Part shown: positions 38,914-55,264 of the stretch, one piece after another
Layout: the number at the start of each line of letters is the position of its first letter
Position numbering within the stretch: the first letter of the stretch is position 1
Origin: Pseudomonadota bacterium
Lineage (GTDB): Bacteria; Pseudomonadota; Gammaproteobacteria; Steroidobacterales; Steroidobacteraceae
Assembly: GCA_025357635.1 (NCBI GenBank)
Contig: JANXOV010000150.1
Span: forward strand, 1 to 55,264
DNA: 55,264 bases
Reading direction: 5' to 3'
Notes under the pieces: generated by a model
Told to the model about the DNA's origin: nothing
Database searches by the model: none
Seen by the model: the letters and a program-made list of their open reading frames with translations, nothing else
Translations under genes and position numbers: made by a program

Positions 38914-39833
38914 GCTCGATTCGCACCAGAGCTGCATATCAGGCGGCGTGGCATCAGGCGGCCGGACGCCTGCACCTCGCCCAATCCTAGAAATTGCGCT
39001 TCCGGGCCGTAAATTCGCACGTTCGGCAGGCAGTCGGCGCGCACATCGACCTTGCGCCCCAGCCGCAGATCGGCGGCCTGCGTAGCGTCCACGTCGAGCC
39101 GCGGTACGTCGCGCAGCGCCTCATCCACGGGTAGCAAATGCTGCCATCTTTCGGCGGGAACCATGGATTCGAGCGCCTCCAGTTTCACCATGCCATGCTC
39201 CTCAAAGGGCGCCACGGAGAGGCGTCGAAGCCCAGTCAAATGACCGATCGTGGAGAGCCGGGCGGCGATATCCTCCGCCAGAACCCGGATATAGGTGCCT
39301 TTGGAACAGTGCACATCGAAGCACAGATCAGGGCTGTTCCAGTTCAGCATCTGCATGCCGTAGATGGCGACTTTGCGAGGCACTCGATCCAGCGTTATGC
39401 CCGCTCTGGCATAGGAATACAGCGGCTTGCCGCCGTGTTTGAGCGCGGAATGCATTGGCGGCATCTGCTCATACTCGGCTGGAAAACCGGCCAATGCGGA
39501 CCGCAGAATCTCGGCCGACAACGCCGGCAGCGGTTGGCGTTCGCACACGGCGGTTTCCTGGTCGCCGCTGGGCGTGCGCTCACCCAGGCGGACTGTGACG
39601 CGATAGGTCTTGTCCGCATCGAGCAGATGCGCGCCAAATTTGGTCGCCTCGCCGAAACAAATGGCGAGGAAACCGGTTGCCAGGGGATCGAGGGACCCGG
39701 TATGCCCGGTTTTGCGAGCGCAGAACAGTCGCTTGAGCCTGGCCACCGCCGCCGCCGAGGTCAGAGCCAGAGGTTTGTCGAGCAATAAGATGCCGTGAAC
39801 GTCCGCGTTCGTGCCGAAGCGGCCTTCACTCAT
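38910..39833 (-). CDS. truB: tRNA pseudouridine(55) synthase
   Basis: A 307-residue enzyme making pseudouridine 55 in the T-loop of all tRNAs. The catalytic Asp49 is in KTGHTGSLDPLATG; MPPMHSALKHGGKPLYSYAR and the PUA-adjacent CSKGTYIRVLAEDIA segment are characteristic. ATG 39833 overlaps the rbfA stop by 8 bp, implying coupling. It is in the standard rbfA-truB-rpsO order. Confidence 0.97.
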   Translation of the reverse strand: MSEGRFGTNADVHGILLLDKPLALTSAAAVARLKRLFCARKTGHTGSLDPLATGFLAICFGEATKFGAHLLDADKTYRVTVRLGERTPSGDQETAVCERQPLPALSAEILRSALAGFPAEYEQMPPMHSALKHGGKPLYSYARAGITLDRVPRKVAIYGMQMLNWNSPDLCFDVHCSKGTYIRVLAEDIAARLSTIGHLTGLRRLSVAPFEEHGMVKLEALESMVPAERWQHLLPVDEALRDVPRLDVDATQAADLRLGRKVDVRADCLPNVRIYGPEAQFLGLGEVQASGRLMPRRLICSSGANRA

Positions 39834-40182
39834 TCGGTTTGGTCACCGAGTCGATGAGCTGGGTCAGTCGCACACCGCGCTCGATCGATTCGTCCAACTC
39901 GAAGGCCAGCGTGGGCGTATAGCGAATCTGCAGCGCCCGGGTCAAGGCGCTGCGCAAAAACGGCGCCGCGCTGTCCAGACCCTTCTGCACCCGCGGGTCA
40001 GGCCCATCATGGCCGAACACCAGATAAAAAACCTTGGCGGTGCGTAGATCCGCCGCCACGTCCACAGCCGTGATGGTCACGTTGCCGATGCGCGCGTCCT
40101 TGACGTCGCGCCGCAGCAGATCGGCCAGTTCGCGCTGAATCTGTTCACCCAGTCTCTTGCGGCGCTGATTTTCCTTGGGCAT
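39826..40182 (-). CDS. rbfA: 30S ribosome-binding factor A
   Basis: A 118-residue KH-fold protein needed for late 30S maturation and cold adaptation. Conserved features include RKRLGEQIQRELADLLRRDVKD at the N-terminus, ITAVDVAADLRTAKVFY, and LQIRYTPTLAFELDES. The start is 18 bases after infB, and the 3' end overlaps truB. Confidence 0.95.
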   Translation of the reverse strand: MPKENQRRKRLGEQIQRELADLLRRDVKDARIGNVTITAVDVAADLRTAKVFYLVFGHDGPDPRVQKGLDSAAPFLRSALTRALQIRYTPTLAFELDESIERGVRLTQLIDSVTKPNE

Positions 40183-40200
40183 GCAGCACCGGTGCGCACG

Positions 40201-42705
40201 CTACAGCGTGCGCGCCACTTCCACCCGCGAATAGCATTCGATCTGATCGCCTTCGCGCACGTCGTTGTAGTTCTTCACACCGATGCCGCATTCGGTGCCG
40301 GCACGGACTTCGTTGACATCGTCCTTGAAGCGCTTCAGTGATTCCAACGCTCCTTCGAAGATCACCACGTTGTCGCGTAGAACGCGGATCGGGAAATTGC
40401 GGCGAACATAGCCGTCCGCGACCATGCAGCCGGCCACCGTGCCAAACTTGCTGGAGCGGAACACGTTGCGCACTTCGGCAAGACCCACGATCTGCTCCTT
40501 GACCTCCGGCGCCAACAGCCCGGTCATGACGGCGCGGATGTCGTCGATGGCTTCATAGATGATGCTGTAATAGCGGACATCGACACCGTTGTCCTTGATC
40601 GACGTGCGCGCCGCGGAATCGCCGCGCACGTTGAAGGCAATGATGCGCGCCTTGGAGGCGGCCGCCAGCGTGACATCGGATTCGGTCAACCCGCCCACGC
40701 CCGATGCCACGATATTCACTGCGACTTCCGAGGTGGAGAGCTTCTGCAATGATTCGCGCAATGCCTCCACGCTGCCTTGAACGTCGCCCTTGATGAGGAT
40801 CTGCACCAGGTTGGCCTTGGCTTCGCCAAGCGTGGAGAAGACGTCCTGCATGTTGGCGCTTTGCTTGGCGAGCTTCACTTCGCGCAGCTTCGCCTGACGA
40901 TGCATGGCGACTTCGCGGGCCCGGCGCTCGGTTTCCACGACCAGCAACTCATCGCCCGCATTGGGCGAACCGGACAGGCCGAGGACGACGACCGGAATTG
41001 ACGGCCCGGCGCTTTCGACCGGCCTCCCCGCCTCATCGAACATGGCGCGCACGCGGCCGAATTCCTGACCGACAAGCAACGGGTCGCCCAGCTTCAAAGT
41101 GCCGCGCTGCACGAGCACCGTGGCAACCGCGCCACGCCCCTTCTCCAGACTGGATTCGATGACGAAGCCGCCCGCCAACCCATCGGTCGGCGCCTTGAGT
41201 TCCAACACTTCGGCCTGCAGCAGGATGCTGTCGAGCAGCTGATCGATGCCCTGTCCGGTACGTGCCGAAACGGAAACGAAAATATTCTCCCCGCCCCACT
41301 CTTCGGGAATGACGCCGTGTTTGGTGAGTTCCTGCTTGACTTTTTCGGCGTCCGCCTCGGGCTTGTCGATTTTGTTGACTGCCACGACGATCGGTACACC
41401 GGCAGCCTTGGCATGCTGAACGGCTTCGATGGTCTGCGGCATGACGCCATCGTCCGCACCGATCACCAGAATCACGATGTCGGTCACCTGGGCGCCGCGG
41501 GCGCGCATCGAGGTGAAGGCGGCGTGACCCGGCGTATCCAGGAACGTGACCATGCCTTTGCTTGTTTTCACGTGATAGGCGCCGATATGCTGCGTGATCC
41601 CGCCCGCCTCGCCGTCAGCGACCTTGGTGCGCCGGATGTAGTCGAGCAGTGAGGTCTTGCCGTGATCCACGTGACCCATCACGGTCACGACCGGCGGACG
41701 CGGCACGCCTTCACGGACTTCCTCTCCGACCAGGCCCTGCAGGTCCTGCTCGATCACGTTTTCCTTTCTCAGCACTGGCGTGTGCCCAAACTCCTCGACC
41801 ACCAGAACAGCCGTATCCTGATCGATCATCTGATTGATCGTCGCCATGACGCCCATGGTCATCAGCGTCTTGATCACTTCAGTGGCTTTGACCGCCATCT
41901 TTTGAGCCAGCTCGCCGACGCTCAGCGCCTCACCGATCGCCACTTCGCGCACGACCTTGGCGGTCGGCATTTCAAAGCCATGCTTGCTGTCGGAGTCGCC
42001 CATCGCGCGGCGGCGGCCATCGCGCGACTTCTTCTTCTTGTGCCGCGCGCTTACATCGCCTGCGATGTGAAGTTCCTGGCGTCCATAGCGAGTGGACTTG
42101 TCGTCATCGGGGGCCCGCGCTGCCTTGACGGGTTTCGCCACCGTAGGCTTGCGCTCACGCTCGGCCTGATCGCGGGCCTGTTGCTCCACCAGGCGCCGCG
42201 CATCGTCTTCTGCGGCGCGCTTCTTGTTTTCTTCATCGGAGCGGCGACGGGCTTCTTCTTCCTGCCGCTCGCGATCCAGGCGCTCGCGCTCGCGCCGCCC
42301 TGATTCCTCGGCCTCCAACGCCGCCTTGGCCTGTTCCTCGAGTTCGCGCTGCTTGTCGAACTCCTCCTGTTGGTGCCGGGCCTGGTCCTCCAGCACCTCG
42401 CGCTTGATGTAGGTGCGTTTGCTGCGAACCTCGACATTTACCGTGCGCGCACGTCCTTGTGGACTTGCCAGCTTCAGTTCGGATTGCGACTTGCGGCGAA
42501 GCGTGATCTTGCGAGGCGCCGCGTCGGCCTGCTCCTCGTTGCCGTGGCTGCGGCGCAGATGCGTCAGCAGCTCGTGTTTGGCTTCTTCGCTGATCATGTC
42601 CTGCGCGTTGGTCACCTTGATGCCCGCTTGATCGAGCTGCAGCAGCAGCCTGTCGACCGGAACCTTCAGCACCTCTGCAAATTGAGCGACCGTAACATCC
42701 GCCAT
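40201..42705 (-). CDS. infB: Translation initiation factor IF-2
   Basis: An 834-residue GTPase delivering fMet-tRNA to the 30S subunit. An N-terminal IF2N domain ([23 protein letters not shown]) is followed by a long charged Glu/Arg/Ala-rich linker (about 90-230), the GTPase domain (G1 GHVDHGKT, G3 DTPGHAA, G4 NKID), and the C-terminal domains II-IV ending [20 protein letters not shown]. Internal initiation giving shorter isoforms, known in enterics, cannot be judged here. It follows nusA by 11 bases. Confidence 0.97.
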
Positions 42706-42716
42706 AGCTTTCTTCC

Positions 42717-44213
42717 TCAGGCCTTCGCTTCGTCAGCGAACCAATGTTTGCGCGCTTCCATGATGAGTTCCGCCGCTTTCGTTTCGTCCAAGCCGGCCAG
42801 CTCCACCAGTTCATCGACGGCCAGGTCCGCCAGGTCATCGCGCGTGCGAACGCCCTTGCGCGCCAGCATCTTGGCGAGCGCGTCGCCGACGCAGGTGATC
42901 AGATCGGCCGAACCTTCCGCCCCGTCCAGCGACTCTTCGCTGGCGATCGCCTGGGTCAGCAGAACATCGCGAGCACGGTTGCGCAGCTCCTTGATGATTT
43001 CCTCGTCGAACTCTTCGATGCCGTTGAGTTCGCTGGCCGGAACGTAGGCGATTTCTTCGATCGTGGAAAAGCCTTCCTGAACCAGAATGCTGGCCACGTC
43101 GGCATCAACGTCGAGCTGCTTCATGAAGGTTTCGCGCAACGCGAGGGATTCGCTTTCGCTCTTCGCCTCCGCCTGGGACTCGCTCATCACGTTCAGCTCC
43201 CAGCCGGTGAGTTCGCTGGCAAGCCGGATGTTCTGCCCGCCGCGGCCGATGGCCTGCGAGAGCTTGTCTTCGGAAACAGCGATGTCCATGGAGTGAGAAT
43301 CCTCGTCGACGACGATGGAGGTGACCTCAGCCGGGGCCATCGCGTTGATCACGAACTGCGCATTGTTGTCATCGTAGGGAATGATGTCGACACGCTCGCC
43401 GGCGATCTCATTGGAAACGGCTTGAACGCGCGAACCACGCATGCCGACGCACGCGCCCACCGGATCGATGCGCGGGTCGTTGCTGCGGACTGCGATCTTG
43501 GCGCGCACGCCTGGATCACGGGCGGCGCCGAGGATGTTGATCAGCCCCTGGCCGACCTCCGGCACTTCGAGTTTGAACAACTCGATCAGAAACTCAGGCG
43601 CAGTGCGCGACAGGAACAGCTGCGGGCCGCGAGGCTCGGGGCGGATCTCCTTCAAGAAGGCTTTGATGCGGTCCTGCGAACGCACCGGCTCACGCGGTAT
43701 CATTTCCTCGCGCGGAATGAAGCCCTCGGCATTTGCGCCGAGATCGACGTAGATGCCATTGCGGTCGACGCGTTTGACAATGCCGCTGACCAGCGAACCG
43801 GCGCGGTCCTTGTAAGCATCGACGACCTGGGCGCGCTCTGCCTCGCGCACCTTCTGCACGATGACCTGCTTGGCGGTCTGCGCGAGAATGCGCCCGAATG
43901 GAACGGATTCCAGCGGCTGTTCCACGAATCCGCCCGGCTCCACATCCGCGTCAATGTCCTTGGCATCGTCCAGGCGAAGTTCGCGCTCGGTGAATTCGAG
44001 CTCCTTGGAGTCATCGGCAAAAACTTTCCAGCGGCGATAGGTGTCGTAGCCGCCGGTCTTTCGATTGATGGCAATCCGCACGTCGAATTCCTCGCCGTAT
44101 TTCTTGCGCGTAGCCGATGCCAGCGCCGCTTCGAGCGCCTCGAAAATGATTTCTTTGTCGACGCCTTTTTCGTTCGAAACCGCATCGACAGCCAGTAAGA
44201 TTTCTTTGTTCAT
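42717..44213 (-). CDS. nusA: Transcription termination/antitermination protein NusA
   Basis: A 498-residue RNA polymerase-binding factor. The N-terminal polymerase-binding domain (about 1-125), S1 domain ([21 protein letters not shown]), two KH domains ([17 protein letters not shown] and [18 protein letters not shown]) and two C-terminal acidic repeats (both including a helix-hairpin-helix-like segment) are all present, so it is the long, E. coli-like form. It lies between rimP and infB in the usual operon. Confidence 0.97.
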
Positions 44214-44264
44214 CGGCCAGACTCCTGAATCCTATCCTCGCGCCGCTCCCGCGGACCGATCATT

Positions 44265-44708
44265 TCAATTGGGCTTCAATTTCGCTTTTTGAATCCGATC
44301 CAACGGCAGTGTGCATTCCTGCCCATCCACTTCAACCACTATCGAGTCCTCGGTCAGGACGCGCAGCAGCCCTGCAAAGCGCCGGCGCCCATTCAACGGC
44401 AGCTTCAACTCGACAAATATCCGCTCTCCGATAAAGCGCTCGAAATGGGCGCGTTTGCGCAAGACCCGATCGAAGCCCGGAGAGGACACTTCAAGTGTGT
44501 AATGACCCGGGATCGGATCCTCCACCTCGAGCATCTCGCTGACCGCGTGGCTGACCCGCGCACAATCTTCGACCGTGACTCGTTGCGCGGAATCAATGTA
44601 CAGCCGCAACACGCCGCTGCGCCCGCTCTGCGCAAACTCGACGTCGACCAATTCGTAACCCATGGCCTCTGCCAAAGGCTCCAACATCCGAAGGAGAGCT
44701 TCGCGCAT
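44265..44708 (-). CDS. rimP: Ribosome maturation factor RimP
   Basis: A 147-residue protein for 30S assembly. EPLAEAMGYELVDVEFAQSG and VLRLYIDS mark the N-terminal domain; HYTLEVSSPGFDRVL with an SH3-like C-terminal domain completes the family pattern. It is the first gene of the rimP-nusA-infB-rbfA-truB operon. Its leader contains an intrinsic terminator, suggesting attenuation of the whole operon. Confidence 0.96.
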   Translation of the reverse strand: MREALLRMLEPLAEAMGYELVDVEFAQSGRSGVLRLYIDSAQRVTVEDCARVSHAVSEMLEVEDPIPGHYTLEVSSPGFDRVLRKRAHFERFIGERIFVELKLPLNGRRRFAGLLRVLTEDSIVVEVDGQECTLPLDRIQKAKLKPN

Positions 44709-45483: not shown

Positions 45484-46278
45484 TTAATGCCGCCAATAAC
45501 TTGCCACCGGTGGCTGAGGTCTGGGACGAAGTGGCTGCGAATCCATCCACTGCCATTGACGGGTTAAACCGGCGGCGGCGCACAGCTCAGCTGCACTGCG
45601 CGCCTCCTCGCTGCCGTGATTGACCATCAGCAAAGCGCCACCAGGTTTCAGATTACCTGCCATGCTGCGCACTAATTCATTGGGTTTCAATAAGTTAAGA
45701 GACAGTCCCCAGGCGAGAATGGGCTCCGGAGAAACAAACGGAAACCAGCAAGTGATCAGTTCGGCGGATTCGGTCTCGTACAGGTAGTCCTGTGCGCGGA
45801 AGGCAGTCGCCGGCCAGGCCCCGGCATATCCTTGGGCGTAATCCTGCCGCGTATAGCCATTGGCATAGCGCCGATAGGCCTCCAACTCGTAGCCCGTCAG
45901 CCGTCGCGGCCGAAAAAAAGTCTGCAGGGCCGCCGCGTACCAGAAGCTTGCGCATCCCACATCGGCCATCACCAAACCGGCGGGCGGCGCACCGCCGGCA
46001 GCGACCCAGGCTCGATCGAGAAAATCCAGGTACGCGTAATTGTTGAGACTGGTCTCTTCGCTGAGCAGCGATTCGAACGCGAAGCCATATTTGCGCCGCA
46101 AGCCGGTGACCCGCACCTGCTGCGCCGGACTGAGCCCATCGATGCGCCCACAAGGCTGCTCGATGTGCAGGCCGCGCGAATAGCGGATGCGATTCGCGAC
46201 GAGCAGGGAAATCCGGTTGCGCAATGAGCGCAATCGTTGGGTCCACGATCGCATCGGAGTAACCTGCATCGCCTGCAT
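45484..46278 (-). CDS. Methyltransferase-like protein of unknown function
   Basis: About 264 residues. The central part resembles a class I methyltransferase: motif I-like MADVGCASFWYAAAL, acidic GYELEAY in the motif II position, and a later NLKPGGALLMVNHG like motif V/VI. The N-terminus is basic (RLRSLRNRISLLVANRIRY), possibly membrane-associating. I recognise no closer family. Starts at ATG 46278, 46269 or 46254 are all possible; the last has AGG eight bases upstream. It lies 46 bases after the phosphoesterase gene in the same direction and may be its operon partner. Confidence 0.6.
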   Translation of the reverse strand: MQAMQVTPMRSWTQRLRSLRNRISLLVANRIRYSRGLHIEQPCGRIDGLSPAQQVRVTGLRRKYGFAFESLLSEETSLNNYAYLDFLDRAWVAAGGAPPAGLVMADVGCASFWYAAALQTFFRPRRLTGYELEAYRRYANGYTRQDYAQGYAGAWPATAFRAQDYLYETESAELITCWFPFVSPEPILAWGLSLNLLKPNELVRSMAGNLKPGGALLMVNHGSEEARSAAELCAAAGLTRQWQWMDSQPLRPRPQPPVASYWRH

Positions 46279-46324
46279 CCTAGCGCGACACAAGCGTTGC
46301 GCACACGAGAGCGGCCACGCAACC

Positions 46325-48004
46325 CTAGAATTGCAGCGAGCCGGTCAAGTCCCCCATCGGGCTTGCGCCGTGCGCGCTCAGGGCCGCATCGCGCGCGGCA
46401 AGGCCCGGCAATAGCGGCAACTCGAAGCGCCGCGTGATCAGCCGCAATACCGATCCGGTGTCGTAGGGCGTGTGATCGATGAAGCCGCGGCGCGCGAACG
46501 GCGAAATGATCAACGCCGGTATGCGCGTCCCCGGCCCCAGCAAATCACCCCTGGGCGGCGGCACATGATCCCAAAAACCGCCGTACTCATCGTAGGTAAT
46601 GACGATGACCATGTGCGCCCACTGCTTTGAGGCCTTGAGCTTGCGCACCAGGGAGGCCAGATGCGCATCGCCGTCGGCGATGGAGGCGTAACCGGGGTGC
46701 TGATTCAGATTGCCCTGCGGCTTGTAGAACACCACGGGAGGCAGCCGCCCGGCCGCTGCGTCGGCCAGCAGATCACCGTAATCCTTCAGATGCTCAGCAC
46801 GCGCCGCAGCGCCGGTGGCCGGATCGAAACCCGTGTAGTAATTAAAGGGTTGATGATGCGGCTGAAAGTCCGGCGCACCGGCCGGTGTATCCGGCGCGTA
46901 GATCACCTTGCGCGTATCACCCGGTGCCCGCATGCCATCCGCGAGCGCGGCATTCCACGCTCCCGCATACCAGCGCCACTGCAGGCCCTTGGCACTCATC
47001 AGTTCACCGATCGTAGTTCCGGTCTGCGGCGGCAGCGTAGTCGGCAGAACAGGATCCGCGTACGTGCGAGTGGCATCGTCCGCAGCGGGCGGGGAGCCGC
47101 TGGGCTGATACGGCGGCTGCAGGGTGTTGATCGCATAGAACCGGCCGTCACCGAAGTAATCGGCCGGCGCGACGCTGCTGCTGATTGTGAACTTCGGCGG
47201 TCCCGTCAACGCCGAGGCGGGAGAGGCCGGATCCAATGCCAGCCGCGGCAGCGGGCGCCCACCGGCATCGCGCTCCAGCTCGGTGATGCGCGGCTTGGCC
47301 GGGGAAGTGTCCGCGTGCGGATACTCGGGCGCGCACGCGCAGATCAGATACTGGTGATTGAGAAAGGAGCCGCCGAACGCGCCCTGAAAGAAGTTGTCGG
47401 CCACCGAATAGCGCTTCGCCAGGTCCATCAGAGCCGAGTGACCGCCATCGTAATGCCCCATGGTCAGGCCACCCGCGTCCGACCACGCCGCAAAACCCTC
47501 ATTGCCGCCCTGCCCGATCTGCATTTGATTCTCGAAGAAGCGGTGATACAAGTCGCGCGTGACCACGGAGACATCCAGCCTCACATTGGATCGTGGCGTG
47601 AAAGCCGTTTCGATCGGAAACGGCGCATTTGGCAGTCCTGCACTTTGCATCTCACTCACGACCGGCGACGCCCCGTGCGCCGTGACGCCACCCCAGGTCT
47701 GCGGCAGTTCAGGCAGGACGCTGCCGTCGCGGTCCAGTTGCGCCACATAGGCGGCGCCCGGCGTTCCATCGGGCTTGAGCACCTCGCCGACGCCGCGCGC
47801 GCCGGGAAAGCGGCCGAACAGATTGTCGAAGGAGCGGTTCTCCGCATAGATGACCACGATGGTGTCGACCTTGGCGCGCAGCTCGCGTGTGATCTGCGCC
47901 GCCGCATCCGGCGGCAGGATGCGCAGGTCGCGGCTGACGCAGCCGCCCAGCGCCAGCAGCAGCGCCGCGGCGGCGGACCGCTGCGCCAACCGCATTGGGC
48001 TCAT
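46325..48004 (-). CDS. Phospholipase C / acid phosphatase-like lipoprotein
   Basis: A 559-residue member of the phosphoesterase family that includes phospholipase C and AcpA (PF04185-type). A signal peptide ends in lipobox LGGC. The metal/nucleophile region is VIYAENRSFDNLFGRFPG, and the C-terminal part has VIVITYDEYGGFWDHVPPP, both diagnostic. It should hydrolyse a phosphoester (phospholipid head group or phosphomonoester) at the outer membrane or periplasm; the substrate is unknown. ATG 48004 overlaps the receptor stop (ATGA), so the two are translationally coupled. Confidence 0.85.
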   Translation of the reverse strand: MSPMRLAQRSAAAALLLALGGCVSRDLRILPPDAAAQITRELRAKVDTIVVIYAENRSFDNLFGRFPGARGVGEVLKPDGTPGAAYVAQLDRDGSVLPELPQTWGGVTAHGASPVVSEMQSAGLPNAPFPIETAFTPRSNVRLDVSVVTRDLYHRFFENQMQIGQGGNEGFAAWSDAGGLTMGHYDGGHSALMDLAKRYSVADNFFQGAFGGSFLNHQYLICACAPEYPHADTSPAKPRITELERDAGGRPLPRLALDPASPASALTGPPKFTISSSVAPADYFGDGRFYAINTLQPPYQPSGSPPAADDATRTYADPVLPTTLPPQTGTTIGELMSAKGLQWRWYAGAWNAALADGMRAPGDTRKVIYAPDTPAGAPDFQPHHQPFNYYTGFDPATGAAARAEHLKDYGDLLADAAAGRLPPVVFYKPQGNLNQHPGYASIADGDAHLASLVRKLKASKQWAHMVIVITYDEYGGFWDHVPPPRGDLLGPGTRIPALIISPFARRGFIDHTPYDTGSVLRLITRRFELPLLPGLAARDAALSAHGASPMGDLTGSLQF

Positions 48005-50460
48005 TGCCGGAAGCTGGCGCTGATGCCGATCGTCCGTGGCCGGAAGGTGAAATTTGAGTACATCGGCCCCGGCGGATTGTCGCCGGGGAAGTACGGGTCC
48101 ACCACGGTGTTGAGATAGTTGGTGGTGGTTCGAGAATCGAACAGGTTGTCTATGAAGAGAGAAAAGTCCCAGCCCTTGAATGCCGCGCCGGCTCGCAGGG
48201 AGGCAAACTTATTGGCCGAGATCGTATACGTATAGGGTGAGTACTGAGAGGATCGTGGATCCTGGCTGGCCGCAGGCCAATTGTTCCTGCTTTGATACTG
48301 GTAGTCGAAGCGAACAAACCCGCCATCGCCGATGCCATCAAACTTGTATTGCAGGCCCAGTGACGCGGTCCACGGCGCAATGGCGCCCGGGCTGCCGCCG
48401 ATGGCAGCCTCGCCCGAAATCGCATCGCCGGTGATCGCCAGTCCCGCCTTGGAATCCTGGGTGTAGCGCGCACTGGTGTAGCCCACCGCGGCCTCCAGAT
48501 CAATGTGCTGGCCGAGCTTGGCTTCGGCCTGCAGATCGAAGCCCTTGGACACGGCCGTGCCGAGATTGTCAGTGAACTGCAGACCACAAGACGACACATA
48601 GACGTTCTGCTGAATGCCGTTCCACTTGATGTAGTAGATGCTGCCGGCAACCCTTACGCGGTTGTCGAAATTGCTTTTCGACCCGATCTCGAAACTATTG
48701 GTCTTGTCCGAGCTGTATTGAGCGGGGGCCTTGCCGTCGGCATAACCCAGATCGACCAGACCACTGGAGCACTGGTCGATCAATGGCGGATTGCCGCCAC
48801 CGGGCCGGAAACCCTTGGCGTACGTGGCATAGAACAAATTGTCCGGATTCATCTGGAAGGACATGCTCACCTTGGGTGTGAAAGCGCTCTCCGACTGGGT
48901 GGCATACGACTGATCGGGACCGAAATTCTGCAAGCCGTCGGCGAAGTGGTTCAAGTCGAAGGTCATTTTTGCGATGCGGCCGCCCAGCGTCAGCTTCCAC
49001 TGGTCGGTGAACGAATACGTGGCTTCGCCGAAGCCTGCAATCTGCCGGTCGTGGACCACATTGCGGTTGTAGTAGGAATCTCCGTTCGGCAGCAATCCGA
49101 AGCCAAACGCATCTTCAGCGTTCACGCCGTACACGGCCTGAAAGAACTGATCCACCTGCGGATCGTTGATCTGCTCGATGCTCTCCTCGCGCGACAGCGA
49201 GAAGAACGCGCCGACCGTCCAGCGCAGTTTCGAGGGGCCATCGTTCGACTGCAGGCGCAGTTCCTGCGCGATGCTCTCCTGCTTGTTGGTGATGCTGGCT
49301 GGCGAGCGATAGTTCTGCAGCGCCGGCGGCAGGTGATAGCCGTTGGTATCGAGGAGCGGGTAATCGGACGGATTGAGAAACGACAGTCCAAAACCTGCAT
49401 TTTCCCAGCCGAGGGATTGATAAAAAGCAACGTTGTACTGCGTGCCTTCGTAGCCGGTGATTTCGTCGCGATGGAACAGCGAGGTGTTGGAGATCAGGGT
49501 GGCGCGGCCCAAATCCGCCTCGATCTTCAACGCCGGCAGGTAGAACTTGTCGGGTACCGGCAGCTGGCTCGGATTTGCATTGTTGAACCTGCCGGCACTC
49601 ACATCCGAATACACCTCCTGGTAATTGGAGACATCGTGCCGCTTGCTGTTCTGATAAAGGATGCTCGGCGTCACTTTGAGGCTGTCCATCGGTTTCCAGA
49701 TGGCCGCCAGCCGCAGCACCACCGTGTTGACGTGATTGGCGTGTTTGTCGACGACTTCGCGCGTGGTCGGATCCACGCGGTCCATCCAGCCGCCGTCGTA
49801 CCGGTACCACACACTGGCGCGATACCCCAGCACATCGTCCTTGATGGGTCCGCCATGCGCGATGCCGGCTTCATAGCTGGCCTCGCCATTGCGCGTGAAG
49901 GACAGTTCGCTGCGCATGTAAGTGGAATCCTGCGTCAGGCTGGGCTGCGCCAGAATGTAGCGCACCGTGCCGCCCTCGGAGCCCGACCCGAACAGCGTGC
50001 CCTGCGGGCCGCGCAGCACCTCCACTCGCTCCAGATCGAAGGTCTTGGGCAACGTGTCGTCGGGATTGAAGCCCAGCGCGCGCATTTGAATGGGCGTATC
50101 GTCGATGTAGATGCCGGTGGTGCCCGCGCCGCCCGAGGACGAAATGCCGCGGATGGAAATGGCATTGGTGCCGGAATTATCGATGGACAGTCCGGGTGTG
50201 AAGCGCACCACGTCATTGATGTCCTTGATGCCCTTCTGATCCATGGTCTCCTGACTGAAGGCGCTGATGCTCAAGGCAACCCGGCTGATGGTTTCCTCAT
50301 GCCGCGTCGCGGTCACGACGATTTCCTGCAATCCACCCTCCTCCACCTGCGCCGCCCGCACCGGCAGTTGCGTCAGCGCGCCGGCAGCCAGCACGCAAAC
50401 GGCCAGGCCGCTGCGCCGGGTTGCCTGAATGAGGGACACCGCATGATTGTTCTTGAACAT
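48001..50460 (-). CDS. TonB-dependent outer-membrane receptor
   Basis: An 819-residue receptor. The signal peptide (SGLAVCVLAAGALTQLPVRA) precedes a TonB box-like QEIVVTATR, a plug domain (FTPGLSIDNSG, IRGISSSGGAG, VEVLRGPQGTLFGSGSEGG) and a beta-barrel with repeated aromatic-alternating strands. It resembles the large receptor family of Caulobacter, Sphingomonas and Steroidobacter rather than a siderophore receptor of known ligand. ATG 50460 follows GGGAG. A plausible promoter lies in the 124-bp gap upstream. The ligand is unknown; neighbours suggest an amine-containing compound. Confidence 0.92.
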   Translation of the reverse strand: MFKNNHAVSLIQATRRSGLAVCVLAAGALTQLPVRAAQVEEGGLQEIVVTATRHEETISRVALSISAFSQETMDQKGIKDINDVVRFTPGLSIDNSGTNAISIRGISSSGGAGTTGIYIDDTPIQMRALGFNPDDTLPKTFDLERVEVLRGPQGTLFGSGSEGGTVRYILAQPSLTQDSTYMRSELSFTRNGEASYEAGIAHGGPIKDDVLGYRASVWYRYDGGWMDRVDPTTREVVDKHANHVNTVVLRLAAIWKPMDSLKVTPSILYQNSKRHDVSNYQEVYSDVSAGRFNNANPSQLPVPDKFYLPALKIEADLGRATLISNTSLFHRDEITGYEGTQYNVAFYQSLGWENAGFGLSFLNPSDYPLLDTNGYHLPPALQNYRSPASITNKQESIAQELRLQSNDGPSKLRWTVGAFFSLSREESIEQINDPQVDQFFQAVYGVNAEDAFGFGLLPNGDSYYNRNVVHDRQIAGFGEATYSFTDQWKLTLGGRIAKMTFDLNHFADGLQNFGPDQSYATQSESAFTPKVSMSFQMNPDNLFYATYAKGFRPGGGNPPLIDQCSSGLVDLGYADGKAPAQYSSDKTNSFEIGSKSNFDNRVRVAGSIYYIKWNGIQQNVYVSSCGLQFTDNLGTAVSKGFDLQAEAKLGQHIDLEAAVGYTSARYTQDSKAGLAITGDAISGEAAIGGSPGAIAPWTASLGLQYKFDGIGDGGFVRFDYQYQSRNNWPAASQDPRSSQYSPYTYTISANKFASLRAGAAFKGWDFSLFIDNLFDSRTTTNYLNTVVDPYFPGDNPPGPMYSNFTFRPRTIGISASFRQ

Positions 50461-50507
50461 TTTTTTCTCCCGCTGCAATAGCTGCAAGTCTGCATCTGCG
50501 ATCACAG

Positions 50508-50536
50508 ACAGTAGCACCGCCATTTGTCGCGCGCAA
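50508..50536 (-). promoter_or_regulatory. Possible promoter of the TonB receptor gene
   Basis: On the minus strand TTGCGC (50536-50531) and TACTGT (50513-50508) are 17 bp apart, the latter preceded by TGC as an extended -10. Matches are moderate. Confidence 0.3.
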
Positions 50537-50584
50537 ACCGCCGGTTCGCGATGCGCACGCGCAGCCCCCAGGCCTGGCGCCGCC

Positions 50585-51715
50585 TCAAGAGCCGGTCTTG
50601 AACTTGGTCCATTCACGCGTCAGGAAACGCGAATACTCCAGGGTCTTGGCAGGCTGGGTCTTGAGGCGCGCCCGTGTGGCCTCATCCGGATGGATGGCCG
50701 GATCCTTGACCAGGACTGCGTCGATGAAGGGCGTTGCGGCGAGATTGCCGTTCGGGTAGCCGATGATATCCGTGATGTGCGCGGTGACTTCGGGCTGCAT
50801 CAGATAGTTCATGAACCGTTGCGCATTGCGCGGGTGCGGCGCGTCCGCGGGAATGGCCATGGCATCCAGCGTCATGATGCTGCCCTCGCTTGGCACGAAA
50901 AACTCGAGCTGCACGCCATTGCCCGCCTCGCGTGCGCGGTTGCGCGCCTGCACTACATCTCCCGACCAACTCAACGCCAGGCACACGCTGCCATTGGCCA
51001 GTTCAGAGATGTACCGCTCTGAATCGAAGTTGCGGATATGGGTGCGGATTTTCTGCAAAGACGCAAAGGCAGCCAGCAGATCGCGCTCATCACCGCTGTT
51101 CGGATCCTTGCCCAGATAGATGAGTGCTGCGCCGACGACGTCAGGAGGCGCGTCCAGCACCGAAATGCCGCATCCTTGCAGCTTGGCCGCATTGTCCGGA
51201 TCGAACAGCAAGGACCAGCTCGGCGCGATGTGCGCACCCAAACGCCGGGTGATCTCCTGTTTGTTGTAGCCGATGCCCACCATGCTCCACAGGTACGGGA
51301 CGGCGTACTGATTTCCCGGATCGTGTAGTGCGAGCCGCCGCATGATGTCCGGGTCCATGTTGCCGAGATTGCCGAGCAGCTGCTTGTCGAGCTTGCGATA
51401 GACGCCCGCCTTCACTTGCCTTTCGAAAAAGTTCACCGTGGGTATGACGATGTCGTAGTTGGTCTTGCCGGTGAGAAGCTTGGTCTCTAGTATCTCGTTG
51501 CTGTCGTACGTGTCGTGGTGTACTTTGATGCCGGTGAGCTTTTCGAAATTAGTCACGGTGTCCGGCGGGATGTACAGCGACCAGGAATAGACATTGAGTT
51601 GATTGGACTCATCGCCGGCGCCGTCGGCAGCGGCTCCGTTGGATGATCCCCCGCCGCAGCCATGCAGCGCGATCGCCAGGCCCAGCATGCACATCCAGCC
51701 TGTAAAGAGCTTCAC
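50585..51715 (-). CDS. PotF/SpuD-like polyamine-binding lipoprotein
   Basis: A 376-residue periplasmic solute-binding protein. GTG 51715 opens a lipoprotein signal with lipobox LHGC. The mature part follows PotF closely: YSWSLYIPPDTVTNFEKLTG, TYDSNEILETKLLTG and GKDPNSGDE. Ligand-site residues of PotF appear conserved, including Trp and Asp in SWSGDV and Asp in TLDAMAIP. It should bind putrescine or spermidine. Unusually it is predicted lipid-anchored and no permease or ATPase gene is adjacent. It overlaps the Rieske gene's stop (GTGA), implying coupling. Confidence 0.9.
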   Translation of the reverse strand: MKLFTGWMCMLGLAIALHGCGGGSSNGAAADGAGDESNQLNVYSWSLYIPPDTVTNFEKLTGIKVHHDTYDSNEILETKLLTGKTNYDIVIPTVNFFERQVKAGVYRKLDKQLLGNLGNMDPDIMRRLALHDPGNQYAVPYLWSMVGIGYNKQEITRRLGAHIAPSWSLLFDPDNAAKLQGCGISVLDAPPDVVGAALIYLGKDPNSGDERDLLAAFASLQKIRTHIRNFDSERYISELANGSVCLALSWSGDVVQARNRAREAGNGVQLEFFVPSEGSIMTLDAMAIPADAPHPRNAQRFMNYLMQPEVTAHITDIIGYPNGNLAATPFIDAVLVKDPAIHPDEATRARLKTQPAKTLEYSRFLTREWTKFKTGS

Positions 51716-52953
51716 GATGCCCAATCGCCCGCCGCGCGGCCCTCGGCTCCCCTCGACAGCTCCTGCAGGTACCAGTCGACAAAACGACCGGCATAGGTTT
51801 CCTGCAGTGAATACGGGCCGGGACAATAGAAGCGCGAGTTCACGCCGGCCTGATTCATTTCCACGATCTTTTTATCCTCCGCGCTGGTGGTTCGCCACAG
51901 CCAGGTCAGGCGCCCAACATCGTAGTCCACGCCTTCCACGGCGTCCTGATGGACCAGCCACATGACTTCCATTTCAGTATGGTCAACCGTCCGGGGAATG
52001 AACCGATAGATGACCCCATGATCCGGATAAGCAAGAAAATCGCTGATGGGCCCGATATCAAAGTAGGTCGAGTTGCCGTCAGAGGCCGAAAACGAGCCCA
52101 TCAACCGGGACACCGACCGGCCGTCATCCGTGGCGCTGACCATGCCATCGTGCAGCGCGCTGCGCATGACGGCGACCGATTCGCGTCCCGCACCGGCGGC
52201 GCATCCATAGTGATCGATGTCCGGCACGACGATTCCAAGTGCCGCCGCGCGTGACCGCCCTGCCAGTTCCAATTCTTGATTGTGCTGCGCCGGGCGTGCA
52301 TACACGTGACGCTTGGCAAACTCAGGGTGCGCCGGCGTGCAGTGGTAGCACTCCATGTAGTTTTCCACGGCGAGTTTCCAGTTGGCCTTGATCGAGTACA
52401 TTTCCCGATGTGCAACCTTGGCGCTCGCCCAGCCATGAACTCCGGCCGAACGGGCCAGCGCGTCCGCCGCGCCCGCAAGCTCCAGCGGTTCCTCGGCGAA
52501 CGTGATGAACACCAGTCCTTCCATGATCCGGACGGGGAGTGATTTCAAAGTGAACTCGGCGCGTTGAAACGAATCCGGCATCTGGCGCGCAACCATCAAC
52601 CGGCCGTCCAGATCGTAGCTCCACGCATGATAAGGGCAGGTCAGCCGTCCGGACTGGACTTTCCCGGAACGCCCCGAACAGATCCGCGAACCGCGATGTC
52701 GGCAGACATTGAGCAGGGCGCGAACCTCACCGGACTGGGTTCGAACGATGATGACCGACTCCGCTCCGAGATCGACCAGCCAGTAGTCACCGGCGTTCGG
52801 GATGCTGCTGGCATGGCCTGCGCAAAACCAATGCCGCAGCAGCATGTCCTGCATATCGCGCTGGAAGATGAACGGGTCGGTGTAAAACTCCCGAGCCAGC
52901 GCGCGTCCGGGCTGACGGTCGCGGATGCGCTGCGCTAAATCTCCGGCCATCAT
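51712..52953 (-). CDS. Rieske non-haem iron oxygenase, quaternary-ammonium type
   Basis: A 413-residue oxygenase alpha subunit. The [2Fe-2S] ligands are Cys84, His86, Cys106 and His109 (CRHRG, CPYHAW). The catalytic iron ligands are His204 and His209 in NWKLAVENYMECYHCTPAH, and the bridging position is Glu201 rather than the Asp of aromatic dioxygenases. Glu there is known in carnitine oxygenase CntA; GbcA and choline-type enzymes are other relatives. It should hydroxylate or demethylate an amine. No reductase gene is adjacent. ATGA overlap with the upstream oxidase gene. Confidence 0.88.
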   Translation of the reverse strand: MMAGDLAQRIRDRQPGRALAREFYTDPFIFQRDMQDMLLRHWFCAGHASSIPNAGDYWLVDLGAESVIIVRTQSGEVRALLNVCRHRGSRICSGRSGKVQSGRLTCPYHAWSYDLDGRLMVARQMPDSFQRAEFTLKSLPVRIMEGLVFITFAEEPLELAGAADALARSAGVHGWASAKVAHREMYSIKANWKLAVENYMECYHCTPAHPEFAKRHVYARPAQHNQELELAGRSRAAALGIVVPDIDHYGCAAGAGRESVAVMRSALHDGMVSATDDGRSVSRLMGSFSASDGNSTYFDIGPISDFLAYPDHGVIYRFIPRTVDHTEMEVMWLVHQDAVEGVDYDVGRLTWLWRTTSAEDKKIVEMNQAGVNSRFYCPGPYSLQETYAGRFVDWYLQELSRGAEGRAAGDWAS

Positions 52954-54809
52954 CCGCTAAGCTCGGTCACCGCGCGATGCGCCTGATCGATGGCCACGTG
53001 CGTGTAGGCGTCCCAGCCCGAATCCGAGTTGGCAATGGCGATGCGCCCGACGCGTTTGCGCGCAGTCTTCGCCAGCTTCTGCATCTGGTCCATGTCATCG
53101 TACAGCGGCGTTGGCGTGTAGGCATAACCGTGCGGCCATCGGTTCACGGTGATCGCTGCCACGTCACGGTCGAAGTCGAAGCCTCCGCCCTGCAGCATGG
53201 CCGACAGCTCCAGGCGAATCTGTTTTTCGAAATCCGCGAAACTCATGGAGTACAGCGTGGAGCGTCCCAACCGGTATTGTTCGCGCATGTTCAGTCCCTG
53301 ATTCGGTGCACCGGGCATGTACTCCAGGTGGGCGCAGATGGGCTGGGAAGGATCGGCCGAAAATCGGTAGTCGCCGAGGCTGACCGGAAAGTCCAGATAC
53401 GCATCGAACATGCCGCCGGCATTGGCGATGTAGGCGACTCCCAACTTGTGCCAGGCCTGCCAGTTGCGCAGGATCACGTTCACATACACCAGCGGCGCAC
53501 GCACATTGGAATGCATCGCAGCTTTCTGCGGCGCACTGAGTTCCGGTGCGATGTAGGGCATCATGGCGTGATAGCAGGCGAGCACGCAGTCATGCGCGGC
53601 AGCCCGCACGGACTTGCCGTCTCTCACATACGCCACCTGCACTTCTTTGTCGGCATTGCGAACCTCGACGGCGGTGGAGTTGAGCCGGATGCGAACGGCC
53701 TGATCCTGCAGATCGAGCCGGGAATAGTCGAAGCGCGCGCTGACGATGTCCTCCATCGAATCGCCTGGCGCTATGCCTGGAATCAAGCGCCGCACCAGCA
53801 TGCGCGCGATCGAGGCATTGCCGTCGGGGAAATGATAAATGTAAGGTTCGGGCGTCTCCGCCAGTCCGGCTTTTTCCAGGAAGGCACGCTGTGCCGCCAT
53901 TCCCGGCAGCGACAGCGATTCGCTCGCCGGCACCGCATCGATTCCGACGGCCCACAATCCATGCGTGCGCTTCTGCAGGAACTTGAGCACGTCCTCATCC
54001 GCCTGCCAGTACTGCTTGAGGAAGTCGCGATAACTGGTGTGCTCGAGAATCATGCGCCGCCGCTCAGTCGTGGTGCCGGCGAGCACGTCGCGCTTGGAAC
54101 CGTACATCTCGATGAGTTGCGCACGGGCGCGCTCGTTCAGGGGAAACTGATCGATATAGGCGCGCAGCGATTGAGCATCGCGCGCCTGTTCGTCCCAATC
54201 ACCCCATTGTCCGAAGGGCTGCCGCACCAGCTTGTCCACCCCGAATCCGGCCGTATTGAAGAACACGCCATGGTTCAATCCCCAACGGCTGTAAAATTCC
54301 TGATCAAAAGCGCTCTTGAAGCGGTCGACATCGATGTTCAATTCCGAAAGAAGCGCCTGCGCCACTTTGCTCCAGTGATGCTTGGGCGAATCGATGGACT
54401 GCGTGCCGCCGTAACCCAGGATCATCCGCCCGTCGATCTGGAATTCGTTGCGCTTGGCATGGCCGCCGAAATCATCGTTGGTGTCGAGCACCAGGATGCG
54501 CGCCTTGGGGTTGCGCTTGATGTAGTAGTGCGCGCTGGCCAGACCGCTGATGCCGGCGCCGACCACGATCAGGTCGTAGCGCTCCTCGACCTTGGCGCCG
54601 GAGAGGTCAAAGGGCAGACCGTCGCGCAACCGGTGTGCCGCTTCGAACGACCCGGCGTGGCTGCCACGCAGACCTGCGCGGGAGGGCGGATAGTAGGCGG
54701 CGGCGGGTTCGTCCGCAGCCCCGGCCTTTGCCCAGCCGATGCTGCCGACACCGGTGACCGCCAGCGCGACACCGTTCATGAAGTCTCTGCGGGTAATCGT
54801 GTCTTTCAT
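52950..54809 (-). CDS. Tat-exported FAD amine oxidase, spermidine dehydrogenase-like
   Basis: A 619-residue flavoprotein. The Tat motif TRRDFM (6-11) and a weakly hydrophobic [12 protein letters not shown] precede the FAD-binding [14 protein letters not shown] (about 82-95) and [10 protein letters not shown]. Further sequence ([29 protein letters not shown]) and length match the family of Pseudomonas SpdH, which oxidises spermidine; assignment is from family memory and the adjacent polyamine-binding gene. It should act in the periplasm. ATG 54809 has AGG abutting it within a hairpin; TTG 54845 is an alternative. First gene of the cluster. Confidence 0.8.
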
Positions 54810-54907: not shown

Positions 54908-55264
54908 ATGCAGGAAATCAGACGCAGCAATGAGCGAGGCTATGCCGATCACGGCTGGCTCAAGTCCTATCACACGTTTTCGTTCGCGGATTACCATGAT
55001 CCGCAGCACGTGCAATTCGGGCCCTTGCGTGTGATCAACGAAGACCGGGTGAGCGCCGGCGCCGGCTTCGGCACGCACGGTCATCGCGACATGGAGATCA
55101 TCAGCTATGTCCTGGATGGCGAGCTGGCGCACAAAGATTCGCTGGGCAACGGTTCGACGATTCGTCCGGGCGACGTTCAGCGCATGAGCGCCGGCACGGG
55201 TGTGCAGCACAGCGAGTTCAATCCGTCCTCAACCCAGCCGGTTCACTTCTTGCAGATCTGGATC
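54908..55264 (+). CDS. Pirin-family cupin protein (3' end beyond window)
   Basis: At least 119 residues, running off the right edge. The frame starts [20 protein letters not shown] and contains the pirin/YhhW signature: [27 protein letters not shown]-like sequence, then [20 protein letters not shown] with the cupin metal-binding His-x-His and Glu residues, and [15 protein letters not shown] with a further His and Glu. Bacterial pirins include quercetinases and regulators of central metabolism. It is divergent from the amine cluster across 98 bp and may share its regulation. Confidence 0.88.

What the first reader, a model, noticed from the sequence alone, without database searches (positions are those of the whole stretch)
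45484..54809. Candidate amine-scavenging locus combining periplasmic oxidase, Rieske oxygenase, polyamine-binding lipoprotein, TonB receptor and phosphoesterase
Six leftward genes with ATGA/GTGA overlaps between the first three and between receptor and phosphoesterase. Functions converge on amines: a spermidine-dehydrogenase-like Tat flavoprotein, a quaternary-ammonium-type Rieske enzyme and a PotF-like binder, plus outer-membrane uptake and a phospholipase C-like enzyme that could release phosphocholine or similar head groups. I know no described system with this combination. One possible model: the phosphoesterase or receptor supplies an amine compound, the lipoprotein captures it, and the oxidase and oxygenase degrade it.
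Basis: partly seen in the sequence, partly recalled or inferred. Interest (0 to 1): 0.7.

Follow-up and report, generated by a model that had tools for sequence, protein, structure and literature searches.

The report
Amine-scavenging operon with TonB receptor
A bacterial gene cluster pairs an outer-membrane receptor with enzymes that break down amines, and relatives of that receptor often lie beside polyamine or quaternary-amine genes, which suggests that it is an import gate for such compounds.

Summary
The functions partly hold. SpdH keeps both heme ligands, the Rieske enzyme has the Group V motif of quaternary-ammonium oxygenases, and the binder is PotF-like. The phosphoesterase is an acid phosphatase (TIGR03397), not a phospholipase C.

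The six-gene set is not conserved: the one genus-mate found has SpdH-PotF-receptor-phosphatase without the Rieske gene, and a shortened last gene. But the receptor's link to amine genes recurs. Of 118 clade receptor rows (200 genomes of the family), 26 have an SpdH within 5 kb, against 0 of 37 more distant receptors. Others sit with Pot transporter and Rieske genes, or with an MttB-type methyltransferase. Three related Sphingobium plasmids, outside the family, also pair this receptor type with spdH.

Best reading: an amine-scavenging operon whose receptor belongs to a family tied to amine catabolism, with a probably inserted N-demethylase. The PotF pocket is altered at D39, E185 and F276, so the ligand is probably not plain putrescine. 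Nothing here shows the substrate, and 42 of 91 receptor loci carried none of the amine markers.

The parts
52950..54809 (-). SpdH: Tat-type spermidine dehydrogenase (FAD + heme b family), first gene of the operon
   Evidence: 7d9i 634 bits over residues 16-629; heme ligands His54/His562 of PaSpdH align with His; TRRDF near the N-terminus (Tat consensus recalled); ATG at 54809
51712..52953 (-). Group V (quaternary-ammonium type) Rieske oxygenase, alpha subunit only; absent from the genus-mate's operon
   Evidence: ECYHC with H-x4-H and CRH...CPYH in the translation; Group V criterion from passages of PMC10952381; absence in L009/G001
50585..51715 (-). PotF-type solute-binding lipoprotein (lipoprotein by signal sequence), with no Pot ABC genes in this operon
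   Evidence: GTG start overlapping the Rieske stop; the sibling copy has a clear lipobox LAAC, the window copy a weaker one, LHGC
48001..50460 (-). TonB-dependent receptor of the amine-linked clade
   Evidence: PF07715, PF00593; model pLDDT 85.9, TonB-receptor fold; clade links
46325..48004 (-). acid phosphatase of the TIGR03397 subfamily, not phospholipase C
   Evidence: TIGR03397 666.3 against cut-off 362.75; TIGR03396 107.7 against 580.25
45484..46293 (-). unassigned protein; methyltransferase-like motifs by eye only (VMADVGC, LKPGGALLMV); only its C-terminal half matched in the genus-mate
   Evidence: no family; no useful structure hit; model pLDDT 39; sibling matches residues 144-268 only
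52950..52953 (-). ATGA overlap, SpdH stop / Rieske start
51712..51715 (-). GTGA overlap, Rieske stop / PotF start
48001..48004 (-). ATGA overlap, receptor stop / phosphatase start

Best explanation
This is an amine-scavenging operon. Its core, shared with the genus-mate, is SpdH, a PotF-type lipoprotein, a TonB-dependent receptor and an acid phosphatase. The receptor would bring a polyamine-type or N-methylated amine through the outer membrane (inferred from gene neighbourhoods in relatives). The lipoprotein would catch it, and Pot permeases encoded elsewhere would take it in (inferred). SpdH would cleave C-N bonds in the periplasm and pass electrons from FAD to heme b (family knowledge; the heme ligands are conserved here). 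In this genome a Group V Rieske oxygenase sits between SpdH and PotF with overlapping start and stop codons, most likely by insertion. It would remove N-methyl groups as formaldehyde, using a reductase encoded elsewhere (inferred from the family and from one orthologue beside formaldehyde-detoxification genes). The phosphatase may remove phosphate from a conjugate or may be a passenger (inferred).
For: Receptor-SpdH linkage: 26 of 118 clade rows within 5 kb against 0 of 37 controls (Fisher p 6.5e-4, and 0.74 expected by position alone). By the genus labels the 26 are in genera g1, g6, g9, g18 and g23; fragment-level cases in g5 and g7 fell below the cut-off. Orientation varies (divergent in g23 loci such as L191, codirectional in L210 and L225 of g18, convergent in L186), so the link outlives rearrangement. 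In 12 of 91 loci SpdH comes with genes that I call PuuA-, PuuB- or SpuC-like; the PuuA-like ones are glutamine-synthetase family below NCBI's PuuA cut-off, the PuuB label is mine for a DAO-family oxidase, the SpuC-like one passes only the general aminotransferase model PRK07480. Clade receptors also sit with Pot transporter genes (27 of 91), MttB (2 of 91) or a Rieske gene alone (1 of 91). Three related Sphingobium plasmids carry receptor, then spdH (two annotated, with one small gene between; the third by coordinates). Window Rieske orthologues at 54% identity or more: 5 of 21, window included, lie within 5 kb of a clade receptor. Genomes with the SpdH orthologue (56% or more) carry the Rieske orthologue in 8 of 13 cases, the rest in 13 of 187. 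One Rieske orthologue (G013:C26) lies with S-(hydroxymethyl)glutathione dehydrogenase and S-formylglutathione hydrolase, both above cut-off.
Against: 42 of 91 clade loci show none of the markers; seven of these are under 8 kb, and L148 holds an SpdH fragment at its contig end. The receptor-Rieske excess over controls is not significant: 6 of 118 against 0 of 37, p 0.34. PotF itself is rarely near a clade receptor (3 of 59 rows within 6 kb: window, G001, G009) or near SpdH (2 of 59: window, G001). The formaldehyde link is one case; no other Rieske row shares a contig with a listed FghA hit. Outside the genus the closest SpdH orthologues (56-71%, 11 genomes) have no clade receptor within 5 kb on their contigs, and the closest Rieske orthologues (77-84%) have none either. 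Small polyamines are generally held to cross porins (recalled). The PotF pocket departs from the putrescine site. The operon has no reductase or ABC genes. Counts are not corrected for shared ancestry.
Confidence: 0.55

Rival explanations
1. Accretion without joint function: SpdH, PotF and receptor were brought together by rearrangement and the Rieske gene is a passenger using the operon's promoter.
For: The full set was found only in this genome; the sibling lacks the Rieske gene. The nearest SpdH and Rieske orthologues are not near clade receptors in other genera. PotF-receptor and PotF-SpdH proximity is rare. The Rieske protein is 77-84% identical to four g6 copies while SpdH is 68-71% identical to the copies in the same genomes, as if acquired separately.
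Against: Receptor-SpdH and, less strongly, receptor-Rieske links recur with other subclades; the sibling has a 2-base SpdH-PotF gap; SpdH and Rieske orthologues co-occur across genomes even on different contigs.
Confidence: 0.25
2. The receptor takes up a metal complex, such as a siderophore with a polyamine backbone, and the enzymes recycle or degrade its amine part.
For: Best fold matches are siderophore receptors (FyuA, FhuA, FoxA); sub-threshold TonB-siderophor hit. A 33% homologue in Sphingobium yanoikuyae lies beside a FecR/sigma-factor pair and is annotated for siderophore transport. Polyamine production feeds siderophore diversity in Serratia (title in the listing, PMC7962358).
Against: Such fold matches hold for most TonB receptors (recalled). 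Many clade receptors neighbour amine-catabolism genes. I did not search the loci for iron genes.
Confidence: 0.12
3. Phospholipid head-group scavenging: the phosphoesterase frees phosphocholine, which the other enzymes degrade.
For: The phosphoesterase family PF04185 matches it and solved phospholipases C are weak relatives; the Rieske enzyme is of the quaternary-ammonium type.
Against: Acid phosphatase model well above cut-off, PC-PLC far below; close phosphatase copies in only 2 of 59 genomes; no choline oxidation genes in the operon.
Confidence: 0.05

Closest known systems
Pseudomonas aeruginosa spermidine dehydrogenase SpdH (7d9f-7d9j)
   Same: Full-length homology, RR motif near the N-terminus, both heme b histidines aligned
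   Different: Here in an operon with a PotF-type lipoprotein, TonB receptor and Rieske gene
Group V Rieske oxygenases: stachydrine demethylase Stc2, carnitine CntA, glycine betaine GbcA
   Same: ECxHC motif at the mononuclear iron; the solved structures of that group are among the best matches
   Different: 306.7 bits to GbcA against a cut-off of 670; no reductase beside it
E. coli PotF polyamine-binding protein
   Same: 47.9% identity; W37, S38, A182, W244, D247 and D278 kept
   Different: D39L, S85T, S87N, E185D, F276T, L348Q; lipoprotein; no ABC genes beside it
Gamma-glutamylated putrescine (Puu/Spu-type) catabolic gene clusters
   Same: SpdH-linked relatives of the receptor lie beside genes resembling PuuA, PuuB and SpuC (labels mine)
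   Different: Those genes are absent from the window operon; I recall no TonB receptor in known clusters
TonB-dependent siderophore receptors (FyuA, FhuA, FoxA)
   Same: Plug and barrel fold
   Different: About 16% identity in the fold alignments; neighbours in relatives are often amine genes

Membership tests
Spermidine dehydrogenase (SpdH) | Full-length homology to the solved enzyme | tested here: met
   634 bits, query 16-629, chain 2-619
Spermidine dehydrogenase (SpdH) | Heme b ligands His54 and His562 | tested here: met
   alignment columns; residue numbers from passages of PMC12564564
Spermidine dehydrogenase (SpdH) | Oxidises spermidine or spermine | not testable with these tools
   needs enzyme assay
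Group V Rieske oxygenase | Rieske CxH...CxxH and 2-His motif with bridging Glu and the Cys pair (E-C-x-H-C) | tested here: met
   translation (ENYMECYHCTPAHPEF); criterion in passages of PMC10952381, which says the Cys pair is found in some Group V members
Glycine betaine monooxygenase GbcA | NCBIfam NF058607 cut-off | tested here: not met
   306.7 bits against 670
PotF-type polyamine-binding protein | Homology to PotF | tested here: met
PotF equivalog (putrescine) | NF007962 cut-off and intact putrescine pocket | tested here: not met
   379.8 against 636; D39L, E185D and F276T
TonB-dependent receptor | Plug and beta-barrel domains | tested here: met
   model and fold search
Acid phosphatase TIGR03397 | NCBIfam cut-off | tested here: met
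   666.3 against 362.75
Phosphocholine-specific phospholipase C TIGR03396 | NCBIfam cut-off | tested here: not met
   107.7 against 580.25

The most novel reading that the evidence does not exclude
The receptor belongs to an unrecognised family of TonB-dependent outer-membrane transporters for polyamines and N-methylated or quaternary amines, present in this bacterial family and, more distantly, in sphingomonads. In this operon it feeds a pathway in which a Group V Rieske enzyme demethylates a methylated polyamine that SpdH then cleaves.
Probability: 0.35. Interest if true: 0.75.

Novelty: new variant of a known kind. Interest (0 to 1): 0.55.

Why it matters
Polyamines and betaines are thought to cross the outer membrane through porins, so TonB energy is not usually considered for them (recalled). 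A receptor family that keeps pairing with SpdH, Pot transporter, Group V Rieske and MttB genes is a directly testable candidate for energised amine import, and gives a substrate hypothesis for a set of TonB receptors now named only by family.

Tried and rejected
Phospholipase C reading: rejected. GbcA as the exact identity of the Rieske enzyme: below cut-off. Formaldehyde genes as a general partner of the Rieske gene: FghA searched over 200 genomes; only G013:C26 shares a contig with a Rieske row (compared by eye). The 45484 gene as a methyltransferase: motifs by eye only; model unusable (pLDDT 39), PDB sequence search gave only an E of 1.5. Receptor ligand by fold: nearest structures are siderophore receptors at about 16% identity, not informative. 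Sigma-70 consensus pattern: 3 matches against 9 expected in the whole window, none in the operon. Loose marker hits (PotG at 33-37%, PuuB-like at 29-34%, SpuC-like at 27-39%) were dropped from the counts by the thresholds; Rieske hits down to 24% were kept there, so that label is loose in that call. For PotF proximity I used 59 of the 70 rows listed: ten from other families and one weak row were left out. Control receptors were meant to be annotated in full; only their coordinates could be used.

Literature: searches (TonB with spermidine dehydrogenase) found no paper, nor did 81 (TonB receptor, Steroidobacter, polyamine). One search found 1 paper, 57 found 14 (10 listed), 62 found 24 (10 listed); seen only as listings, and no listed title is about TonB uptake of polyamines. 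One search found 48 papers with at least two of five terms; the 15 listed had no occurrence of 'TonB-dependent receptor', the other 33 were not seen. Searches served the Rieske, SpdH and PotF questions. Only open-licence PubMed Central text is covered. Read as passages: PMC10952381, PMC8666671, PMC12564564.

Full report
What is there. The window's right end carries six leftward genes between 45484 and 54809. Reading 5' to 3' on the minus strand: SpdH (ATG at 54809), a Rieske oxygenase, a PotF-type lipoprotein (GTG at 51715), a TonB-dependent receptor (ATG at 50460), an acid phosphatase, and a protein without family. The three overlaps are exact: ATGA at 52953-52950, GTGA at 51715-51712, ATGA at 48004-48001. 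The phosphatase and the last gene are 31 bases apart by ORF coordinates; the start of the last gene is unclear. A divergent pirin gene begins at 54908.

What the genes are. SpdH is a full-length homologue of P. aeruginosa SpdH (634 bits); the two heme b ligands named in PMC12564564 (His54 and His562) align with histidines 71 and 572 of the 631-residue ORF. The Rieske enzyme carries ECYHC at the mononuclear iron, the feature described for the Group V enzymes CntA and Stc2 in PMC10952381, and its best structure matches are 3vca, 4qup and 3n0q. It is not GbcA by NCBI's cut-off. The binder is 47.9% identical to E. coli PotF. Of the pocket residues listed in PMC8666671 it keeps W37, S38, A182, W244, D247 and D278 but has L for D39, T for S85, N for S87, D for E185, T for F276 and Q for L348. 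That paper reports D39 and E185 conserved in 96% or more of 250 sequences. The sibling keeps D39 but shares T at 276 and D at 185; binders from Pot/Rieske loci of L179, L183, L214 and L158 also have both, though they lack D278. So the ligand is amine-like but probably not plain putrescine (inference). The phosphoesterase is an acid phosphatase by TIGR03397 and not a phosphocholine phospholipase C.

Is the set conserved? The genus-mate (G001:C521, of the same length as JAFEGC010000056.1, which is L009) has SpdH, PotF, receptor and phosphatase in the same order at 78, 68, 78 and 72% identity, but no Rieske gene there. SpdH and PotF are 2 bases apart, the last gene matches only over residues 144-268, and an amidohydrolase lies on the other strand. 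G001 is 82% complete and has no Rieske match at 1e-75 or better. Close copies of the phosphatase occur in 2 of 59 genomes (own and G001); five others have partial matches at 30-46% identity. So the six-gene set was seen only here, and the Rieske gene is an insertion or, less likely, a loss in the sibling. The Rieske protein is 77-84% identical to copies in four g6 genomes, whereas SpdH is 68-71% identical to its copies in the same four (one partial), which favours separate acquisition (inference).

Does the receptor-SpdH link recur? I searched 200 genomes of the family with the receptor and with SpdH. From the listed rows I took 118 clade rows (94 full-length at 47% identity or more, 24 partial); as controls 37 rows at 45% or less, 31 and 6. 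The listings were cut off, so these are the best-scoring rows, not all. SpdH lies within 5 kb for 18 of 94 and 8 of 24, together 26 of 118, and for 0 of 37 controls (Fisher p 6.5e-4, chance expectation 0.74). The p values treat rows as independent, which they are not. Seen from SpdH, 26 of 127 rows have a clade receptor within 5 kb. Orientation varies between loci, which argues that the link is maintained.

Neighbourhoods. Seventy-five clade rows were fetched with flanks and joined with 15 earlier loci and the window: 91 loci. By marker matches, 26 carry Pot transporter genes with a Rieske gene, 1 Pot alone, 1 a Rieske gene alone, 12 SpdH with PuuA/PuuB/SpuC-like genes, 7 SpdH without them (window included), 2 MttB with an amino-acid permease, and 42 none. 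Seven of the 42 are under 8 kb. The markers are my labels: the PuuA-like protein is of the glutamine-synthetase family, below NCBI's gamma-glutamylputrescine synthetase cut-off; the PuuB-like one is a DAO-family oxidase; the SpuC-like one passes only a general aminotransferase model. MttB there matches PF06253 and is below the cut-off of TIGR02369.

Tree. In a FastTree of 98 sequences, outgroup included, the window and sibling receptors fall, with support 0.996, in one clade with most receptors of Pot/Rieske loci and both MttB loci; that they are sister to all the rest of that clade is weak (0.45). This clade also holds one SpdH/Puu locus (L087) and nine tips whose loci have no marker. The other SpdH/Puu-linked receptors form a second clade with many marker-less loci; the SpdH-linked G000:C48 receptor is basal. 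The window operon thus unites a receptor of the first clade with an SpdH.

Rieske and PotF links. Among 21 orthologues at 54% identity or more (window included; the G063 row has five stops inside), 5 lie within 5 kb of a clade receptor (window, G153, G099, G121, G222) and none near a control; 1 of 30 lower rows does. Against controls this is not significant (6 of 118 against 0 of 37, p 0.34). SpdH lies within 12 kb of 3 of the 21 (window, G113 at 9 kb, G108 at 5 kb). Genomes with an SpdH orthologue at 56% or more carry a Rieske orthologue in 8 of 13 cases, the others in 13 of 187 (p 3.5e-6, or 2e-5 without the window's genome); outside the window the two are on different contigs (rows), and g6 and g13 dominate, so ancestry may explain part of it. 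PotF is seldom near a clade receptor (3 of 59 rows within 6 kb) or SpdH (2 of 59). In G013:C26 the Rieske orthologue follows S-(hydroxymethyl)glutathione dehydrogenase and S-formylglutathione hydrolase and precedes an aromatic aminotransferase, what an N-demethylase releasing formaldehyde would want; this was seen once. A 48% homologue on a Rhizobium plasmid has carnitine 3-dehydrogenase about 5 kb away; a Shinella homologue has no such neighbour.

Outside the family. In 72,556 plasmid records the receptor has 14 records with a match at 1e-40 and SpdH 12. The three best receptor matches (41%) are on Sphingobium plasmids with spdH close behind; the strains are related, so this counts as one independent case. 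Sphingobium is alphaproteobacterial; I take the window's family to be gammaproteobacterial, but no call names it. I looked at three further receptor neighbourhoods, none with SpdH adjacent: Novosphingobium US6-1 has a urea carboxylase/allophanate operon, EMRT-2 has SpdH 27 kb from its receptor, and S. yanoikuyae has a FecR/sigma pair and two peptidases. One Duffyella SpdH has no receptor within 7 kb.

Mechanism. Shown: gene order, family membership, motif and heme residues, recurrent receptor-SpdH linkage. Inferred: import through the receptor, capture by the lipoprotein, periplasmic oxidation by SpdH, cytoplasmic N-demethylation by the Rieske enzyme with a reductase from elsewhere, and Pot permeases from elsewhere (the genome has eight further PotF-like matches, and a PotF-PotG-PotH-PotI-like run at C132). 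Substrate unknown; a methylated or larger polyamine would use both enzymes and fit the altered pocket, but nothing here tests it.

Novelty. The searches listed under Tried and rejected showed no paper describing TonB-dependent polyamine uptake in the open library, as far as listings go. The enzymes are known kinds; the receptor link is the new part.

Noticed in passing
window 54908-55264 (+); L138:5811-6689: A pirin gene diverges from SpdH in the window, and another pirin lies near the SpdH orthologue in G013:C16 with one gene between.
   Followed up: no
L142:6164-9216, L146:299-3369: Clade TonB receptors directly follow an amino-acid permease and an MttB-family methyltransferase in two genomes of genus g13.
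   Followed up: partly
L183, L159, L163 and similar loci: A recurrent locus: Rieske gene, HemL-like class III aminotransferase, two FAD enzymes with weak CrtO matches, PotG, TonB receptor, in some with PotFHI and a BetI-like regulator. Its substrate is unknown.
   Followed up: partly
L123:9337-18299 (G000:C136): A second PotF-TonB receptor neighbourhood in the same genome, with two M20 peptidases, an AraC regulator and a gene clustering with the amidohydrolases.
   Followed up: no
L235:836-10217 (Novosphingobium pentaromativorans plasmid pLA3): A 39% receptor homologue follows UAAP1/2, urea carboxylase and allophanate hydrolase; such genes are linked to guanidine breakdown (recalled).
   Followed up: no
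L236:4110-9866 (Novosphingobium sp. EMRT-2 plasmid): An SpdH homologue about 2.6 kb from a two-subunit Rieske dioxygenase pair.
   Followed up: no
G000:C105:52652-53212: A partial SpdH-like copy with two stop codons inside, one of several SpdH paralogues in the genome.
   Followed up: no
window 39826-44708 (-): The operon lies close to a rimP-nusA-infB-rbfA-like block (names recalled from the ORF sequences).
   Followed up: no
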